Positions 42,037 to 49,221 of a stretch of DNA of 64,000 nt are shown here, in pieces (position 1 is the stretch's first letter; each line of letters opens with the position of its first letter). The DNA is taken from contig NZ_JACWMS010000002.1 of NCBI RefSeq assembly GCF_014673215.1, forward strand, positions 1,178,001 through 1,242,000, given 5' to 3'. The position numbers and the translations under genes are program-made. This stretch comes from Gordonia hankookensis. Lineage in GTDB: Bacteria; Actinomycetota; Actinomycetes; Mycobacteriales; Mycobacteriaceae. The notes beneath the pieces are model-generated. The model was not told the origin of the DNA. It did not search any database and worked only from the letters and a program-made list of their open reading frames with translations.

Positions 42037-42110
42037 GGGCCTATAGCTCAGGCGGTTAGAGCGCTTCGCTGATAACGAAGAGGTCGGAGGTTCAAGTCCT
42101 CCTAGGCCCA
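42037..42110 (+). tRNA. ileT: tRNA-Ile (GAT)
   Basis: A 74-base cloverleaf. The acceptor is GGGCCTA/TAGGCCC with discriminator A, and the D arm begins AGCTCAGGCGGTTAGAGC. The anticodon stem CTTCG/CGAAG holds loop CTGATAA with anticodon GAT, and the T arm is GGAGG-TTCAAGT-CCTCC. CCA is not encoded. Same place as ileT of mycobacteria. Confidence 0.97.
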
Positions 42111-42170
42111 CTGCGAGAGGTGTTCCGCACACCCGATTCGCACCCAGTTCGGTCGTGACCCGACCGGTCC

Positions 42171-42243
42171 GGGGCCTTAGCTCAGTTGGTAGAGCGCTGC
42201 CTTTGCAAGGCAGATGTCAGGAGTTCGAATCTCCTAGGCTCCA
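42171..42243 (+). tRNA. alaT: tRNA-Ala (TGC)
   Basis: A 73-base cloverleaf. The acceptor is GGGGCCT/AGGCTCC with one G-T pair, then D arm AGCTCAGTTGGTAGAGC. The anticodon stem CTGCC/GGCAG holds loop TTTGCAA with anticodon TGC, and the T arm is AGGAG-TTCGAAT-CTCCT. The 3' CCA is encoded (42244-42246), unlike in tRNA-Ile. Confidence 0.97.
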
Positions 42244-42463
42244 CCATTTTCGGCGTACTCTCTGAGACCTCGGCGTCTCCTAGCGTGGGACCGCATGTCG
42301 CTCCTGCTGAGACCACTCCCGTCGCCAAAGACCCTTCGCGCGCGAAAGGTGTCTGGCGAGGGATGAGGTGTCTATCGTCTCTGCTGGATCGGCTCGTGAC
42401 GATCACGGGGCTCATCGACCCGATGCCACACTGGAAGCGTCCGAGCGGAGAGGTGGGCTGTCC

Positions 42464-43225
42464 ATGGTTCCGGATCCGGTGAGCGTCGACGAGGCGGAAC
42501 TCCGTCGACAACTGGCGGCCGTCTACCGGCTGATGGCGCACTTCACCATGACCGACCTCATCTTCACGCACATCTCCGTGCGGCTCCCTGGACCCGACGA
42601 CCATTTCCTGATCAATCCGTACGGTTTGATGTTCGAGGAGATCACGGCGTCCAATCTGGTGCGGATCGACCTCGACGGTCGGGTGGTCGGGGACACCTCG
42701 GCGCCGGTCAATCCGGCCGGCTTCGTCATTCACAGCGCCATCCACCGCGAACGTCCGGATGCGCACTGCATCGTGCACACCCACACACTGGCCGGGTGTG
42801 CGGTCGCCGCGTCAGAATCGGGGTTGCTCCCGCTCAACCAGATCTCGATGGAGTTCGCGGGACGGGTCGGCTACCACGATTACGAGGGGGTGGCGCTCAA
42901 CCTCGACGAACAGAAACGGTTGGTGGCCGACATCGGCTCCCACCCGGCGCTGATCCTGCGCAACCACGGTCTGCTGACGGTCGGGACCACCCCGGCGCAG
43001 GCCTTCTTGCGGATGTATTACCTGAACAAGGCGTGCGAGATACAAGTGGCGGCGACACGAGCCGGTGACGTGGTCATTCCCGACAGCGCCATCGTCGAGC
43101 ACACGGCACAGCAACTCAACGGTGAGACGCCCGGAGATGATTTCACCGACGACGTCGGCTACGGCCTGGCCTGGGAGGCGTTGCTGCGACTCGTCGAGCG
43201 GATTGCGCCGGACTACAAGGAGTGA
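42464..43225 (+). CDS. Class II aldolase/adducin-family protein
   Basis: A 253-residue protein of the class II aldolase/adducin family. Zinc-ligand histidines appear in HCIVHTHTLAG (~103-113) and in ILRNHGLLTVG (~163-173). The N-terminus (RRQLAAVYRLMAHFTMTDLIFTHISVRLP) and FLINPYGLMFEEITASNLVRID match the family. Some members are sugar-phosphate aldolases or epimerases and others have no known activity; the substrate here is unknown. ATG 42464 has purine-rich leader sequence upstream; the open frame to 42368 is not used. It stands between the tRNA pair and the accessory island and has no obvious operon partner. Confidence 0.88.
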   Translation: MVPDPVSVDEAELRRQLAAVYRLMAHFTMTDLIFTHISVRLPGPDDHFLINPYGLMFEEITASNLVRIDLDGRVVGDTSAPVNPAGFVIHSAIHRERPDAHCIVHTHTLAGCAVAASESGLLPLNQISMEFAGRVGYHDYEGVALNLDEQKRLVADIGSHPALILRNHGLLTVGTTPAQAFLRMYYLNKACEIQVAATRAGDVVIPDSAIVEHTAQQLNGETPGDDFTDDVGYGLAWEALLRLVERIAPDYKE

Positions 43226-43342
43226 GTTGTCGTGGGTCCTGGGTCGGGGGCGCTTGTCGTTCACACGGAGGACGATCGTGGCGTCCGAATCCGCATGAAG
43301 TAGCGTGAACGCGTTGTTGGCGATCGATGTTGGGGGATTCTG

Positions 43343-43837
43343 GTGTTTACGCGGAAGATTTGGGTGCTGCTGCTCGCTGTCGTCGTAGCTGCGCTGAGCT
43401 TGCTGGGCGCTGGGCGTGTGGCAGCGGAGCCGCAGTTGCCGCGGATCGCGATCTACAGCGACAATTTCGGCACCGTGGGTGACCACAACAATTGTCGCGG
43501 AGCTCTCAACGTTGGGGTTATTGCACCGAAAGGTAAGCGCGGGACCATTCGAGTAACCGTGACCTCCTTTGGATTCACAGGCGACGGAACGGGGTGGACG
43601 CGAAACCCAAAGTGCCGGTTTCTCCTTCGACTGACGCAGTGGAGTGCGAGGTATCCGGTCGGCAAGGAGGAGTTCTATCCGGTCGCGTTCGGCCCGCGCC
43701 GGGGCGAGAGGTTCGTTCGCGAACTCCATCCAGGATCTGGCATCGGCTCCTTCAACGTAGCCACCTACGCAATCAATCAGCCCGTCCAGGTGCCCCAGTC
43801 TTATGGTGGCAGCGGATTTCTTGCCACGGTTCCTTGA
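43343..43837 (+). CDS. Secreted two-cysteine protein A (paralogous family)
   Basis: A 164-residue protein of no family I recognise. The signal peptide (KIWVLLLAVVVAALSLLGAG...VAAEP) ends near residue 28, leaving a mature protein of about 135 residues. It is clearly paralogous to the products at 46993 and 48763. Shared features in order are PRI..YS, G....CRGA..V, a SFGFTGDGTGW segment, NPKCR, a FGPRRGE segment and GSG near the end. The only two mature cysteines are the two conserved ones, so a disulfide is likely. GTG 43343 follows GGGGGATT. It is the first gene of the accessory island. Confidence 0.75.
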   Translation: MFTRKIWVLLLAVVVAALSLLGAGRVAAEPQLPRIAIYSDNFGTVGDHNNCRGALNVGVIAPKGKRGTIRVTVTSFGFTGDGTGWTRNPKCRFLLRLTQWSARYPVGKEEFYPVAFGPRRGERFVRELHPGSGIGSFNVATYAINQPVQVPQSYGGSGFLATVP

Positions 43838-44632
43838 GATGAGTGGATGTGCTGATGCAGGTCCACTCTCGCGAACGTTCTACACCCGGAACTACCCAGA
43901 AGCTGATTGAGCGCTGGACTTTCAGATGGTTCGCTCGGCGCCTACTCGTTCGGCGGGTCCGCTGTATCGTTCGGCGATACACTCTCGGGCGGCCGGCCTG
44001 ATCTGGACCCATGGGCGCCGACTTCGTCGAGGCCGCGCCCGCCGATCATCCCTATGACCACGCCGAGATCACCGGTGTCGCGGCAGCCATCTCAGTTTCG
44101 AACTGTTGTCGGTGATGGCGGCAGGCGGCTTGGTTGATGTTCCCTTGTTTCACCTCCAGGATCGGGCAACCAAGATTCATAACAGTCTGGCGATCTGGTT
44201 AAGGCCCTCATCACCCCATTGGTTTCGCATTCGGCGGTCTTGTGTTCAGTGGCGTGTCTGCGCAGTCGAGGGACAGGGTTTCGACGAGATGGTTCACCCT
44301 TGCGCGTCGTCCGAGCGAATGATTTTGAACGTGTCTTCATCACCCGGGAGGGTTTGGGGTCGGAAACAGCGCTACCGCGATGTCACAATCCGGACGGCGG
44401 ATACACGGCGAGAACGGACAAAGGACTGGTCGGGTATCCTGCCAGCGAGCATTGTCGGGGGCGCGGTTGTTCGGGGGCTTCATTTGACGCAGGGGGAACT
44501 GTCCGCCACTGGTGTTGACGTAGCGCCGGTGTGGGATTGCCACGCTGCTTGCAGCGGCGTGACGTGCCGCCGTCATCCGGACAAGCCAGTTACGCCACGG
44601 ACTTGCGACGGCCTGGGGAGGAGGCAACGACA
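43838..44632. other. Gene-poor interval, probably decayed
   Basis: About 800 bases with no convincing gene. Several short frames are open, but none has a ribosome site or a recognisable protein. A short stretch (44011-44115) translates as Met-Gly-Ala-Asp-Phe-Val-Glu-Ala-Ala-Pro-Ala-Asp, which has the composition of a real actinobacterial protein but is closed on both sides by stops. The base composition after 44130 is less GC-rich than in the core genes. It looks like the remains of deleted or transferred genes. Confidence 0.45.
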
Positions 44633-45487
44633 GTGGTGACCGAAGGTAGGCACGAGTGGTTCGCCGACGTTCCCGCGTGGCCGACAACGGGCGACACGCC
44701 AGCGCGTGCATTGGCCCGGGCTCTTGCCGACGCGAGGCTTGTCACTGTCGGCCCCAGGCCGGCGTCCCCGATTGGCGGGCGCACGGAGGAATCACCACCG
44801 CCACCCGATCCCCAGCATCCTGAGACCTCGGTTCCGGAGGTCGCACCGGATGACGATCAACCAGCGCGAACCGCTCTCTCTGATGAGGATCTGTTTGAGC
44901 AGATGCGCGTCCGTAAGGTCGCCCCGAAGGGGAAGAAGGGTCCACAGCGCTTCTGGAAGGATCACCGCGGTCCCATTGTGGGGGCAGCCGCAGCCGCTTT
45001 GGTGGTCGGTGTTGCGGCAGCGCTTGCGATTGGCAAGTCCATGAGCGGCGACGACCCGACCCCGAAACAAGTGGCCGTGCCACAGCCCTCGGCAACATCT
45101 TCTGCCGCAATGGCTGAGCCTTGCCCGTCATCTACCGACGGCGCGGTCACGACTGGCAGTGATGCCGGCGACCAGAGGTCCGGTCCCGGTGTGATCAAGG
45201 CCTTCAATCACGCCTATTACATCGAACGATCAGCCACACGGGCCCGAGCGGTATCCACCCCGAACGCAGTGGCATCACGAGACGTGATGCAGAAGTACAT
45301 CGATCAGCGACCGCGCGGCACCGAATACTGCCTTTCGATCACGGCTCGCGGCAGAACGACATATGACGTCGAGCTCACTGAGACGCCGCCGGATCCGGGC
45401 GCGGTCCCCATCGTCTACCGGCAGACGATCCAGACTGTCGAGGCCGGCGGTAAGACCTGGATCTCCTCGATCAAATCCATCGGATGA
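44633..45487 (+). CDS. Single-pass membrane protein with extracytoplasmic C-terminal domain
   Basis: About 284 residues. GGAGGAGG (44617-44624) lies 8 bases before the GTG at 44633. The N-terminal ~110 residues are cytoplasmic: an EWFADVPAWPTTGDTPARALARALADARLV segment, then a Pro/Glu-rich linker and LSDEDLFEQMRVRKVAPKGKKGPQRFW. A span follows (GPIVGAAAAALVVGVAAALAIG, ~117-138), a Ser/Thr/Pro linker and a C-terminal domain (~185-284: GVIKAFNHAYYIERSATRARAVSTPNAVASRDVM, then EYCLSITARGRTTYDVELTE and KTWISSIKSIG). This domain resembles unnamed actinobacterial extracytoplasmic domains found near secretion-type loci; I cannot name it securely. It precedes the glycine-zipper gene by 73 bases, so the two are likely co-transcribed. 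Confidence 0.75.
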   Translation: MVTEGRHEWFADVPAWPTTGDTPARALARALADARLVTVGPRPASPIGGRTEESPPPPDPQHPETSVPEVAPDDDQPARTALSDEDLFEQMRVRKVAPKGKKGPQRFWKDHRGPIVGAAAAALVVGVAAALAIGKSMSGDDPTPKQVAVPQPSATSSAAMAEPCPSSTDGAVTTGSDAGDQRSGPGVIKAFNHAYYIERSATRARAVSTPNAVASRDVMQKYIDQRPRGTEYCLSITARGRTTYDVELTETPPDPGAVPIVYRQTIQTVEAGGKTWISSIKSIG

Positions 45488-45560
45488 CGTACCTCCGATG
45501 AATCGCCAACAGACCACAGGCTTCCCGATGGAAGCCGCCTTTGAAAGGAATCTCACCACC

Positions 45561-46856
45561 ATGGCTTACGCATCAGAGCGCCGGTCGCGGCATCGTCATG
45601 ATCCGGAGGGTCGTCGAAGCCCGTTGTTGTTGTCGGTGACCTCGGCGGCGTTGGCCGCGTCGATTGCTGCGGGTGTGGGTGCGGGTTTGGCGCAAGCTGC
45701 TCCGGAGCAGGGTGGTACGAGTCCGAGTGATACGGCGCCGCAGCAGGGTGGTACGACTCCGGATGTGCCGGCGCCTGAGCAGGGTGGGACGACGCCGACT
45801 CCGCAGGTGGAGCCTGCGTATACGCCGGGTCCGGGGTCGATTCCGGCGCCGCCGCAGGAGGCGCCGTATCAGTCGTATTCCGAACCTGATTCGGGTGCGA
45901 GTTATGAGAATGCGTATACGCCGTTGCCGTCGCGGCCGTTGACCGCGCCCAAGCTTGCCAAGCCGGTGCGCCCGATTGCGCCGCCGCCGAAGAAGATTCG
46001 GGTCGGCAACTTCGTGTCTGATATTCCGAAGGGGATGTCGCAGAAAGATGTGAACTCGGTCAATGCGTGGTCGGCGTATGGGGAGGCCAAGATCGCGCAG
46101 GGTTTGATTTCGGTGGGGGTGCCCGAGGATCAGGCATCCCGTCAGGCGGCGTCGACGATCATTGGTGTGATGACCGGCGGAACTGCGGGTGCGGTGACGT
46201 TGGGGATTCCGGCTGCGGTGATGGGCGCGGCAGGTGGCGCGGTGATCGGAACCGGGGTCGGGGCGGTGGCGGGCGCGGTATACAACGGGGTGGCTTTCGG
46301 GTGGCTAGGTCCGCTGTCTCCGCAGTGGGGGGTAATGGTCGGCATCGGCACTGCTGCGGGCGCCGGCATTGGACTCGCAGCAGGCGGTGCGATCGGCGCA
46401 GTCGGTGCCGGTGCCGCCGGTGCGGCGCTGGGCGCAGCAATCGGTGGAACCGCTGGTGGAGCCCTCGCGTACGCCCTCGGAGCAGGAGACCCGGGCGCGC
46501 ATCCTGAGGAACCCTGGAAGCAGGGCAAGCCACAGTCACCGAAAGCCAAGCCGCTCCCGAACCCCGGGGCCAATCAGTTCGAGTACAAGCTCTCCGCCCA
46601 GGATGCGAAGAAGTCGGGATTGCCGGCCGTCAATTACGTCGTCAATCACCGCGGTGACGTCAACGTCGAGGTCGGGAACTGGAAGGCGAACTGGAGCGTC
46701 GAACAAGCGCTCGCGCCATACGGGCTGATGGGTGGCGAAGCTAAGCAGGGCGAGAAGTCTGCGCGTGACATGACCAAGCAGCGCAGTAGTCAGATCGAAT
46801 CCACAGTTCCGGGGGGGAAGGTGGACTGGCCGCAGGAAATCGCGCCAGGACACTGA
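45561..46856 (+). CDS. Secreted glycine-zipper protein
   Basis: A 431-residue protein. A signal peptide (LLLSVTSAALAASIAAGVGAG...AQAAP, ~25-50) is followed by a Pro/Gly linker with three PEQGGT-like repeats (~50-85). A conserved-looking segment comes next (IRVGNFVSDIPKGMSQKDVNSVNAWSAYGEAKIAQGLISVGVPEDQA). Then a ~130-residue hydrophobic region is built of Gly/Ala zippers (GTAGAVTLGIPAAVMGAAGG, VGIGTAAGAGIGLAAGGAIG, GAGAAGAALGAAIGGTAGG). A soluble C-terminal domain (~345-431) ends DWPQEIAPGH. Glycine zippers of this kind insert in or pack within membranes. AAAGGA lies upstream of the ATG at 45561. A frameshifted copy of the last ~30 codons lies at ~47752-47850. The function is unknown; a pore-forming or envelope role is an inference. 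Confidence 0.78.
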   Translation: MAYASERRSRHRHDPEGRRSPLLLSVTSAALAASIAAGVGAGLAQAAPEQGGTSPSDTAPQQGGTTPDVPAPEQGGTTPTPQVEPAYTPGPGSIPAPPQEAPYQSYSEPDSGASYENAYTPLPSRPLTAPKLAKPVRPIAPPPKKIRVGNFVSDIPKGMSQKDVNSVNAWSAYGEAKIAQGLISVGVPEDQASRQAASTIIGVMTGGTAGAVTLGIPAAVMGAAGGAVIGTGVGAVAGAVYNGVAFGWLGPLSPQWGVMVGIGTAAGAGIGLAAGGAIGAVGAGAAGAALGAAIGGTAGGALAYALGAGDPGAHPEEPWKQGKPQSPKAKPLPNPGANQFEYKLSAQDAKKSGLPAVNYVVNHRGDVNVEVGNWKANWSVEQALAPYGLMGGEAKQGEKSARDMTKQRSSQIESTVPGGKVDWPQEIAPGH

Positions 46857-46992
46857 TTAACTCAGCACCACCAATGACCTTGCAAAATGACCCAAGGTGA
46901 CGATCACCTCGAACGGCCCACAATCCGCGCCGCAAGGGATGTGACCAAGACAGATCTAAATGATCAAACTGCATGAGTGCTAGGGGGAGAGT

Positions 46993-47478
46993 GTGATTCG
47001 GAAGCTGGCAATGCTCGTCGTGACTGTCGTCGTGGGTGCACTGACTGTACTTGGTTCGGGCGTCGCATCCGCTGATCGGCCGGTTCCGCGATTGACAGTC
47101 TACAGCGAAACCCTCGGTATGTTTGGTGACCACGACTTCTGTCGTGGAGCAGTACATGTTGGGTTGACCACGCCCACCACGAAACGTGGAGTTCTCCGGC
47201 TGACCTTAAAGTCTTACGGATTCATCGGCAATGGTTCGGGGTGGCAGCGTAATCCGCATTGCCGAGTGCTCGTGGATGCGGTGACCACAAGTGCGAACAA
47301 TCTCTACAAAGAGACCTTCATTGCCGCTACATTTGGTGCGCGTCCGGGCCAGCTAGTGATTCGCGATATTTACACTGGCTCGGGGCCGGTCAGTATCGGC
47401 GTAAATCCGTACGCACGAGATACACCGATTCGGGCCCCGCAGGGGCAGGCCGTTGGAGCGATGGTTCTGGTTCCATGA
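46993..47478 (+). CDS. Secreted two-cysteine protein B (paralogous family)
   Basis: A 161-residue paralogue of the products at 43343 and 48763, closest to A. The signal peptide (KLAMLVVTVVVGALTVLGSGVASA) ends near residue 28. The shared pattern is PRLTVYSETLG, GDHDFCRGAVHVG, a YGFIGNGSGW segment, NPHCRV, TFGARPG and YTGSGPVSI. GGGGGAGA lies 2-10 bases before the GTG at 46993. It follows the glycine-zipper gene by 136 bases on the same strand and is itself followed by the degraded copy of that gene's 3' end. Confidence 0.78.
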   Translation: MIRKLAMLVVTVVVGALTVLGSGVASADRPVPRLTVYSETLGMFGDHDFCRGAVHVGLTTPTTKRGVLRLTLKSYGFIGNGSGWQRNPHCRVLVDAVTTSANNLYKETFIAATFGARPGQLVIRDIYTGSGPVSIGVNPYARDTPIRAPQGQAVGAMVLVP

Positions 47479-47751
47479 CGTCGCACTCGTCGGCATAAAC
47501 GATCGATTATCCACGCAGTCCGGATGCGGCCGCAGACGTATCGGGCCACCGAGGCCGTGGTCAAGAGGGCGAGCTATGCAGACCACGGTGAGTTGTGGCC
47601 AGATGGTCTGATAGAGGTATGTTTCCAATCACAGCTTGCAAAATGGACGAGGGCGTGGCTGGACATGCAATCCGGCTTGGCGTGCGGTTACGGTGGCCAG
47701 CAACTGGGGTTCGCGAGGATAATGGGTAGTCGCTGTTTCGGTGGCGTTTGG

Positions 47752-47850
47752 TCGCGACATGACCAAGCAACACAGCGGTCAGGGAATTCCACAGTTCCAG
47801 GCCCTGAAGTCAACTGGCCGCAGGAGTCCGCACCGGCCCACCGGAACAGG
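47752..47850 (+). pseudogene. Degraded copy of the 3' end of the glycine-zipper gene
   Basis: The sequence from CGCGACATGACCAAGCAACA matches the region 46762-46856 (CGTGACATGACCAAGCAGCG and on). It continues through TCCACAGTTCC and ACTGGCCGCAGGA in both copies. A small deletion shifts the frame in the middle: the first part reads RDMTKQ and the second, in another frame, reads STVPGPEVNWPQESAPAH against STVPGGKVDWPQEIAPGH in the intact gene. The rest of the 470-base interval (47479-47948) has no gene I can support. Confidence 0.75.
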
Positions 47851-47948
47851 ACGAATAGACTGGGGGCGGCCCGCGCAACACTGGGTCGCACCGGGTTGGT
47901 GACCAAGTCCCACATGGTGCGCCGATACAACGGAGTTCGAGAGTTACG

Positions 47949-48662
47949 ATGAGCGAGGATGCACAGGGACGGTCCGACCCTATCCATCCACCGGACACCG
48001 CAGAACGCAGTGTCGTCGTTTGCGGCACCGCAGGCGGAGTTGGTACCTCGGTGGTTTCAGCTCTCCTGGCCGAATACCGTGCAGCGACCTCACTGGGTGG
48101 CGCGTCCTGGTGGGTTGACGCTGCGGGAAACGACGGAGATCTGCACCAGCGGCTTCGTGCAACAGGGGATGAGGCGTTGCTCCGAACGGCGTCGGGTACG
48201 GGATTACTCCCCGCCCCCGACGCTGCGGTCACCGATGTCGTTTTACACACATGGCGTTTCGGCGCCGTGCCCGTAGTCGATGCCGGATCGCGCCCTCTGA
48301 CGGTCCTGAGTGAGCTCGAGTCACCCGAATTACGTGACGTCACACCCGTTCTGGTCGTCGGTCCGCGTCCTGATCTCCTGAACCGCGCACGTGAGATCTT
48401 CACCGAATGGGATCAGGCCGGGGTGCTCGAACGCACCGTCGTGGTGGTCTGTTGTCAGGTACCGACTCTGAATCATCAAGCGCTCACCCAAATGCTCATC
48501 GACGTGGTGTCGGGCAGTGTCGCAGGCGTCATCGGGTTTGATTATGAGCCGGTGCTGGGTGGTGGCACTGCGCTCGATAGAGAAGCTCAGCGGGGGTTCG
48601 CACCCGGTTCATGGAATGCGTTTCGCGATCTGGCCGAGTTGACCAGCGGGAGACGCGCTTAG
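47949..48662 (+). CDS. MinD/CpaE-like P-loop-fold protein with degenerate Walker A
   Basis: A 237-residue soluble protein. The N-terminus reads SVVVCGTAGGVGTSVVSALL (~21-40), which aligns with the KGGxGKT Walker A of ParA/MinD proteins, but both signature lysines are missing (A and T instead). The following WWVDAAGNDGDLHQRL corresponds to the DLDP..G..... region, and VLVVGPRPDLLNRAREIF and VVVVCCQVPTLNHQAL look like the later core strands. Some CpaE/Ssd-type septum or secretion proteins also lack the lysine. It may bind nucleotide weakly or not at all. GGAG lies ~14 bases before the ATG. Its stop is about 100 bases from the convergent secreted protein C gene. Confidence 0.72.
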   Translation: MSEDAQGRSDPIHPPDTAERSVVVCGTAGGVGTSVVSALLAEYRAATSLGGASWWVDAAGNDGDLHQRLRATGDEALLRTASGTGLLPAPDAAVTDVVLHTWRFGAVPVVDAGSRPLTVLSELESPELRDVTPVLVVGPRPDLLNRAREIFTEWDQAGVLERTVVVVCCQVPTLNHQALTQMLIDVVSGSVAGVIGFDYEPVLGGGTALDREAQRGFAPGSWNAFRDLAELTSGRRA

Positions 48663-48762
48663 ACATCAGATCGTCTTTTTGGTGGCAGGTCCGGCCTCCG
48701 CGCGCGTCGAGAACCGCGACAACTGCAGACGGCCAATGAAGGATCTGACAAGACCAATTGAA

Positions 48763-49221
48763 TCAGGGAATGAGAACGAAATTTCTTGTGCCCCAGGACA
48801 GGCCATGAGTCTGGAAACCTAGTACGTGCAGACCCGAACCAGTGGGTAGCGTCAGGTGAACCGACCTTCCGCCCCGGGGTCCTGCGGTAACGGTCCGATT
48901 CCAACCCCCGCGAACGAAGTCCATGCCGACTTCGATGTTGACCCTGCAGACTGGATTGGCTCGCCAATGCGCACCGTCTCCTGCGAAGCTCCGCGGCGTG
49001 TACGTAACGAATGCTCGACCGGGCCGCGCCTGGTCGACATCGATGGCGACGTGTATCGCTCCGCGACACCCACTGTTTCCGCCCACTGCCCAAACATCCT
49101 CGCTGTATTGGCTGATCCTGGGCGCCGGGTGTGATGCCGCGGCAGCGGTTCCTGCGCCGATGGCCGGTACAACGACGAGTGCAACAGCAGCGCACAGCAG
49201 GGTCAGGGAACGATGGAACAC
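48763..49221 (-). CDS. Secreted two-cysteine protein C (paralogous family)
   Basis: A 152-residue paralogue of A and B, on the opposite strand. The signal peptide (SLTLLCAAVALVVVPAIGAGTAAA) ends near residue 28. The shared pattern is PRISQYSE, GNSGCRGAIHV, a SFAGDGAHW segment, NPVCRV, a GPRGGRS segment and LPTGSGLHV, ending FVLIP. GAAAGG lies 7 bases before the GTG at 49221. It is more divergent than A and B are from each other but keeps both cysteines. Confidence 0.75.
   Translation of the reverse strand: MFHRSLTLLCAAVALVVVPAIGAGTAAAASHPAPRISQYSEDVWAVGGNSGCRGAIHVAIDVDQARPGRAFVTYTPRSFAGDGAHWRANPVCRVNIEVGMDFVRGGWNRTVTAGPRGGRSVHLTLPTGSGLHVLGFQTHGLSWGTRNFVLIP

What the first reader, a model, noticed from the sequence alone, without database searches (positions are those of the whole stretch)
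43343..49221. Three paralogous secreted two-cysteine proteins in one island
The products at 43343, 46993 and 48763 are all 150-165 residues with a signal peptide. They share PR(I/L)..YS, CRGA, a FxGxGxxW segment, NPxCR and GSG in the same order, and just two conserved cysteines. I recognise no named family. Three copies scattered on both strands within 6 kb, between otherwise conserved core genes, suggest repeated duplication under selection, as seen for immunity, effector or adhesin-like proteins.
Basis: partly seen in the sequence, partly recalled or inferred. Interest (0 to 1): 0.75.

Follow-up and report, generated by a model that had tools for sequence, protein, structure and literature searches.

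The report
Plasmid-linked secreted Ig-like protein family
The three related genes encode small exported proteins of an unnamed family that, in Gordonia, travels with a glycine-rich exported protein also found at the head of plasmid transfer gene clusters, so they are probably envelope recognition proteins from plasmid transfer that settled in the chromosome; their actual function is untested.

Summary
Products at 43343 (+), 46993 (+) and 48763 (-) are homologous (BLASTP E 9e-46, 6e-15, 2e-15), exported by pattern, and share two cysteines; a fourth copy lies about 64 kb beyond the third, outside the window. No Pfam, NCBIfam, PHROGs or PADLOC family was met. The model is an all-beta, Ig/FnIII-like sandwich.

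They are old paralogues, not a local triplication. The family (FAM) is in 28 of 59 Gordonia genomes (two weak hits dropped); all 28 carry the glycine-zipper gene (GZ), and 66 of 76 FAM rows lie within 5 kb of a GZ.

GZ and its neighbours (TM, MinD-like) have homologues in the transfer regions of Gordonia plasmids, on three of them as cutinase-TM-GZ-MinD ahead of T4SS-type genes. FAM is on 8 Gordonia plasmid records, all with GZ, and on 18 Rhodococcus records. The island follows tRNA-Ile/tRNA-Ala and has low GC3. FAM copies are lost, amplified and recombined.

Best reading: a plasmid-transfer-derived envelope module in which FAM is the variable exported partner of GZ, most likely for mating recognition or exclusion. 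Linkage is shown; function is inferred.

The parts
43343..43837 (+). FAM copy A, exported 164-aa protein, signal peptide about 1-28, Cys51/Cys91
   Evidence: closest relative in the tree is a copy in G050
46993..47478 (+). FAM copy B, exported 161-aa protein, Cys50/Cys90; the copy that was modelled
   Evidence: (AlphaFold2 pLDDT 80.7, pTM 0.73)
48763..49221 (-). FAM copy C, exported 152-aa protein of a shorter subfamily that groups with plasmid-borne or plasmid-like copies
45561..46856 (+). GZ: exported 431-aa protein with Pro-rich PEQGGTTP-type repeats, glycine-zipper region (about 196-306) and conserved C-terminal segment; usual partner of FAM in Gordonia
   Evidence: no Pfam match over cut-off
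44633..45487 (+). TM: 284-aa protein with one transmembrane segment (about 113-133) and a C-terminal domain; found upstream of GZ on chromosomes and plasmids
   Evidence: model poor (pLDDT 42)
47949..48662 (+). MinD/ParA-like P-loop protein without a curated family match, part of the module on chromosomes and some plasmids
   Evidence: a plasmid homologue weakly matches PF01656 (E 0.17, under cut-off)
47753..47825 (+). remnant of a GZ 3' end after FAM B, trace of a duplicated GZ-FAM unit
   Evidence: blastn 76% over 75 bp, E 2e-9; local score 60 against a maximum of 34 in 300 block shuffles
42037..42246 (+). tRNA-Ile (42037-42111) and tRNA-Ala (42171-42246) preceding the island
   Evidence: the same two tRNA genes were found in 5 of 5 other loci scanned

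Best explanation
The island is a chromosomal copy of an envelope module that belongs to transfer regions of plasmids of mycolic-acid bacteria. TM, GZ and the MinD-like protein correspond to genes at the head of plasmid T4SS-type operons; GZ is exported and probably sits in or under the mycolate outer membrane. FAM is an exported, probably disulphide-bonded Ig-like binding protein that works with GZ. Because FAM is missing from most GZ-bearing plasmid records, often stands apart from GZ on plasmids, and is the most variable and most often amplified part, I think it acts in recognition at the cell surface: an exclusion-like or mating-specificity function, in which the FAM set of a cell decides which GZ-bearing machines can engage. 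Shown: homology, export-type signals, fold class of the model, linkage, plasmid transfer context, turnover and recombination. Inferred: GZ-FAM contact, location in the mycomembrane, recognition, exclusion, and that the plasmid operons are working conjugation systems.
For: FAM with GZ: 28 of 28 FAM-positive Gordonia genomes have GZ, 66 of 76 FAM rows lie within 5 kb of a GZ; with MinD-like: 27 of 28. GZ on 25 plasmid records, all Gordonia. TM and GZ in 7 of 8 Gordonia plasmid stretches fetched (L127-L133; the eighth, L156, is another part of the plasmid of L133). Cutinase before, SCO6880 and TraG/VirD4-type genes after TM-GZ in one direction on pGKT1, pCP86, pKB1 and p2. FAM on 8 Gordonia plasmid records, the same 8 with three queries, all with GZ, within about 1 kb of it in 4; on pRJH1 of Rhodococcus cutinase, TM, GZ-like and FAM genes lie within 8 kb. 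FAM lies 11 kb or more from GZ on the other 4 Gordonia plasmids and no GZ was detected in 4 of 5 Rhodococcus stretches read, as expected for an accessory function. GC3 0.57-0.71 against 0.816 (sd 0.046, n 43). Mosaic copies: in G040/G050 the FAM A signal region is 93-95% and the mature part 61-64% identical in DNA; 7 of 16 pairs with mature parts over 85% have signal peptides under 75%, six of the seven among four copies. Invariant columns in 46 sequences are three Gly, two Cys and one Phe; the best conserved polar residue reaches 87%, so an enzyme is unlikely.
Confidence: 0.4

Rival explanations
1. FAM is a structural accessory of the GZ complex: an Ig-like subunit or chaperone that helps GZ fold, insert into or cross the mycolate outer membrane, in transfer or in another export task on chromosomes. 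It has no recognition role.
For: Tight GZ-FAM pairing and tandem GZ-FAM units; many chromosomal modules retain TM, GZ and MinD together.
Against: 19 of 56 GZ rows have no FAM within 5 kb and 17 of 25 GZ plasmid records have no FAM detected; FAM without detected GZ in 4 of 5 Rhodococcus plasmid stretches; the two GZs of this genome, 86% identical, sit beside FAMs 48% identical.
Confidence: 0.28
2. GZ is a glycine-zipper surface toxin and FAM its exported immunity protein; arrays of GZ 3' fragments with FAM genes resemble orphan toxin-immunity cassettes.
For: Arrays such as GZ-FAM-FAM-GZ fragment-FAM-FAM-GZ fragment-FAM in L059; diverse FAM copies; GZ has an exported glycine-zipper region.
Against: GZ C-terminus is conserved, not polymorphic, in 19 sequences; 17 of 25 GZ plasmid records have no FAM detected; genomes G029 and G033 carry GZ with no FAM found; no PADLOC match.
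Confidence: 0.12
3. FAM is a general secreted envelope or binding protein of mycolic-acid bacteria, with plasmid and GZ linkage secondary and strong only in Gordonia.
For: No GZ in 16 of 20 other-genus loci; matches in 12 of 31 genera sampled, some weak.
Against: Linkage in Gordonia is near complete, plasmid carriage recurs in two genera, 4 of 20 other-genus loci do have a GZ, and a distant copy lies beside a plasmid-type coupling-protein homologue in L118.
Confidence: 0.2

Closest known systems
Entry/surface exclusion proteins of conjugative elements (recalled: TraS/TraT of F, PrgA/Sea1 of enterococcal plasmids, YddJ of ICEBs1)
   Same: Plasmid-borne, apparently accessory, exported by pattern, sequence-diverse, in 4 of 8 Gordonia plasmids close to a transfer-region gene
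   Different: No named family was matched; exclusion was not tested; FAM is also amplified on chromosomes with GZ, TM and MinD-like genes
Actinobacterial T4SS-type plasmid transfer operons (SCO6880, TraG/VirD4, transglycosylase; TcpC-like and VirB4-like on pGo-1)
   Same: TM and GZ, and on some MinD-like, lie at the head of or beside such genes on Gordonia plasmids
   Different: None of the T4SS-type genes searched for (SCO6880, coupling protein) or the plasmid cutinase was found in the window; FAM is not in the four operons of pGKT1, pCP86, pKB1 and p2
Ig-like/FnIII beta sandwiches (GH2 central domain, FnIII monobodies)
   Different: At most 11% identity; such scores are common for this fold and show no function
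CDI/polymorphic toxin orphan cassettes (recalled)
   Same: Repeated partner-gene fragments followed by small diverse genes
   Different: GZ C-terminus is conserved and GZ occurs without FAM

Membership tests
Any curated protein family (Pfam, NCBIfam, PHROGs, PADLOC) | score over the curated cut-off or significant match | tested here: not met
   Window FAMs: none in Pfam at E up to 1, NCBIfam best E 0.23, PHROGs best E 0.33, PADLOC none. 46-member alignment in Pfam: best DUF6764, 2 of 46 members, E 0.018
Solved structures by sequence | significant profile match to a PDB chain | tested here: not met
   Only a ribonuclease inhibitor at E 0.18
Ig-like/FnIII beta-sandwich fold | two-sheet all-beta sandwich topology | tested here: inconclusive
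Exclusion protein | reduces uptake of a related conjugative element by the cell that makes it | not testable with these tools
   needs mating assays
Exclusion protein | encoded on conjugative elements | tested here: inconclusive
   On 8 Gordonia and 18 Rhodococcus plasmid records, but these are typed mobilizable or non-mobilizable, none conjugative; transfer genes were read on only some of them
Exclusion protein | exported or envelope-located | tested here: inconclusive
   signal peptide by hydropathy and pattern only; location not measured
Core T4SS component | present in every transfer operon of the type | tested here: not met
   FAM detected on 8 records against 25 with GZ, by single-sequence tblastn, the same 8 with three queries
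Polymorphic toxin immunity | always accompanies the toxin gene | tested here: not met
   19 of 56 GZ rows have no FAM within 5 kb; 3 of 31 GZ genomes have no FAM in the kept rows, one of them (G028) with a FAM fragment
Polymorphic toxin immunity | neutralises the adjacent toxin | not testable with these tools
   needs expression tests

The most novel reading that the evidence does not exclude
FAM is an unrecognised family of surface recognition proteins of mycolic-acid bacteria that governs conjugation across the mycolate outer membrane: GZ is the envelope-spanning transfer component, FAM its variable counterpart, and chromosomal FAM/GZ islands record past plasmids and set which plasmids a Gordonia cell exchanges.
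Probability: 0.27. Interest if true: 0.75.

Novelty: new variant of a known kind. Interest (0 to 1): 0.55.

Why it matters
How transfer machines of Gordonia, Rhodococcus and relatives cross the mycolate outer membrane, and what limits plasmid exchange between these cells, did not come up in the listings of my searches of the held library (I opened no paper, so this is not proof of absence). The module TM-GZ-(FAM)-MinD names concrete, deletable candidates, and the FAM repertoire gives a testable prediction for which strains should exchange which plasmids.

Tried and rejected
Recent local triplication: rejected by the tree. Phage origin: no FAM match in 50,697 phage records with one query; no GZ relative confirmed in viral contigs; the FAM alignment could not be used for that scan. 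Defence system: no PADLOC match. DUF6764: followed to the own genome; I saw no FAM motifs in the protein of the strong hit there (L123), by eye only. Enzyme: no invariant catalytic-type residue. VirB8-like reading of TM (recalled idea): model too poor (pLDDT 42), left open. Clean empty site behind the tRNAs: not found; other genes fill it in the two read. Positive selection: not shown. A first neighbourhood run used wrong reading frames for TM and GZ; one search replaces it, and nothing's TM/GZ rows is used. In one search the upstream rows (gyrA, DUF3566, aldolase) of the window/G049 pair aligned unrelated DNA and are not used. Literature: nine of ten searches used; only listings and abstract openings seen, no paper opened. 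Fold libraries: Foldseek searches could not be run; the VIA list is a second look at Foldseek's ranking and singles out no particular relative.
Full report
Observation. Pairwise BLASTP E-values are 9e-46 (A-B), 6e-15 (A-C) and 2e-15 (B-C). Copy C has one more cysteine, inside the signal peptide. A fourth copy, with its own GZ, is elsewhere on the same contig.

Family and distribution. A profile from the three found matches in 30 of 59 genomes of the genus at E up to 0.01; I dropped two weak ones (G016 at 0.008, G057 at 0.0049), leaving 28, with up to 6 rows per genome, some of them fragments. The genus is Gordonia by inference: several unnamed contigs have the lengths of named Gordonia contigs (for example 233201, 21153, 14527 and 642467 bases). 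One search also found two Williamsia loci. A 46-row profile matched 82 of 401 genomes and 12 of 31 genera of the family at E up to 0.001, some of these weakly, and 4 of 394 genomes in a sample of the class, all four in the same family. No curated family was met and no solved structure by sequence. Invariant columns are three Gly, one Phe and two Cys.

Neighbourhood. In corrected searches TM, GZ, FAM and MinD recur together across Gordonia, in varying order and number. GZ was found in 31 of 59 genomes, MinD-like in 29 of 59. All 28 FAM genomes have GZ; 3 GZ genomes (G028, G029, G033) lack FAM in the kept rows, and G028 has a fragment of FAM near MinD and GZ. The Fisher value (1e-13) ignores phylogeny. 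66 of 76 FAM rows lie within 5 kb of one of these GZ rows; of the 10 others, 3 have no GZ on their contig and 7 are 12 kb to 2.8 Mb away; 37 of 56 GZ rows have FAM within 5 kb. In 20 loci from other genera, a GZ profile found GZ in the stretch in 4, TM in 2 and MinD in 1; one more (L118) has a plasmid-type coupling-protein homologue 1.6 kb from FAM.

Plasmids. GZ homologues occur on 25 plasmid records, all Gordonia, MinD-like on 8, FAM on 8, the same 8 with three queries. All 8 FAM records are among the 20 GZ records that were listed of 25. On pGKT1, pCP86 and p2 the order is cutinase, TM, GZ, MinD-like, DUF6668 and then T4SS-type genes to a TraG/VirD4-type protein (the Pfam test was made on pCP86 alone); pKB1 has cutinase, a small gene, TM and GZ ahead of such genes. 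pGo-1 has FtsK-like, TM, GZ, a small gene and FAM, next to TcpC-like and VirB4-like genes on the other strand. A distant FAM query found 19 records, 18 of Rhodococcus and 1 of Gordonia. Of five Rhodococcus stretches read, pRJH1 has cutinase, TM, GZ-like and FAM within 8 kb; in the other four no GZ, TM or MinD was detected. FAM is 11 kb or more from GZ on four of the eight Gordonia plasmids. MOB-suite types these records as mobilizable or non-mobilizable, none as conjugative, so working transfer is inferred from gene content.

Origin and evolution. GC3 of the island's FAM, TM, GZ and MinD genes is 0.57-0.71; 43 other window genes average 0.816, sd 0.046; but DUF4190 beside the island is also low at 0.698. 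The island follows tRNA-Ile and tRNA-Ala; at the same place G037 and G014 have other genes and G024 has TM-GZ-MinD without FAM. Against its near relative G049, dS is 0.11-0.14 for two downstream core genes but 0.39 (GZ), 0.69 (MinD), 1.1 (TM) and near or past saturation (FAM C, FAM A); dN/dS of FAM C is 0.19. FAM B has no counterpart in the G049 alignment. In G040 and G050, the other module and flanking genes are 90-99.6% identical, the FAM A signal region 95% and its mature part 61%. Among 2,346 pairs of 69 copies, 2 share signal peptides over 85% with mature parts under 75%, and 7 of the 16 pairs with mature parts over 85% have signal peptides under 75%; six of these seven are pairs among four copies, one of them with signal peptides too different to align, so they are not independent events, and start sites were chosen by script. 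Arrays of GZ or GZ 3' fragments with FAM occur in L047, L055 and L059, and the window holds a GZ 3' remnant at 47753-47825. The tree separates A, B and C, with weak deep nodes; C groups with copies on pGo-1 (G014:C2, matched by its length) and on contigs that may be plasmids (0.99). Both C-type clades are present in G040 and G050, so differential loss explains part of the C difference.

Interpretation. What is shown is an unnamed exported family, its pairing with GZ in Gordonia, and GZ's place in plasmid transfer regions. I infer that FAM is the variable surface partner of GZ, with exclusion or mating specificity the likeliest use (0.4 for the whole statement), a structural helper role next, then a general envelope role and toxin immunity. 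In the listings I saw no paper on this module; I opened none. Names of exclusion proteins, CDI systems and the VirB8 idea are recalled.

Noticed in passing
L059, L047, L055: Tandem arrays in which whole GZ genes or GZ fragments are interspersed with FAM genes; looks like repeated GZ-FAM unit duplication with decay of GZ.
   Followed up: partly
L153:6915-8213: A Rhodococcus plasmid GZ-like protein is annotated 'insoluble domain protein'; no paper in the held library holds that phrase.
   Followed up: partly
L130:8341-9906, L131:11415-13010: A cutinase-family gene heads the T4SS-type operon of several Gordonia plasmids, which may open the mycolate layer during mating (inference).
   Followed up: partly
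L118:1870-3690: A plasmid-type coupling-protein homologue (42% identity) lies 1.6 kb from a distant FAM copy in another genus.
   Followed up: no
window 42037-49221: The site behind tRNA-Ile/tRNA-Ala between the gyrA region and ppiA carries different genes in different Gordonia genomes (L134, L138, L137): an insertion hotspot.
   Followed up: partly
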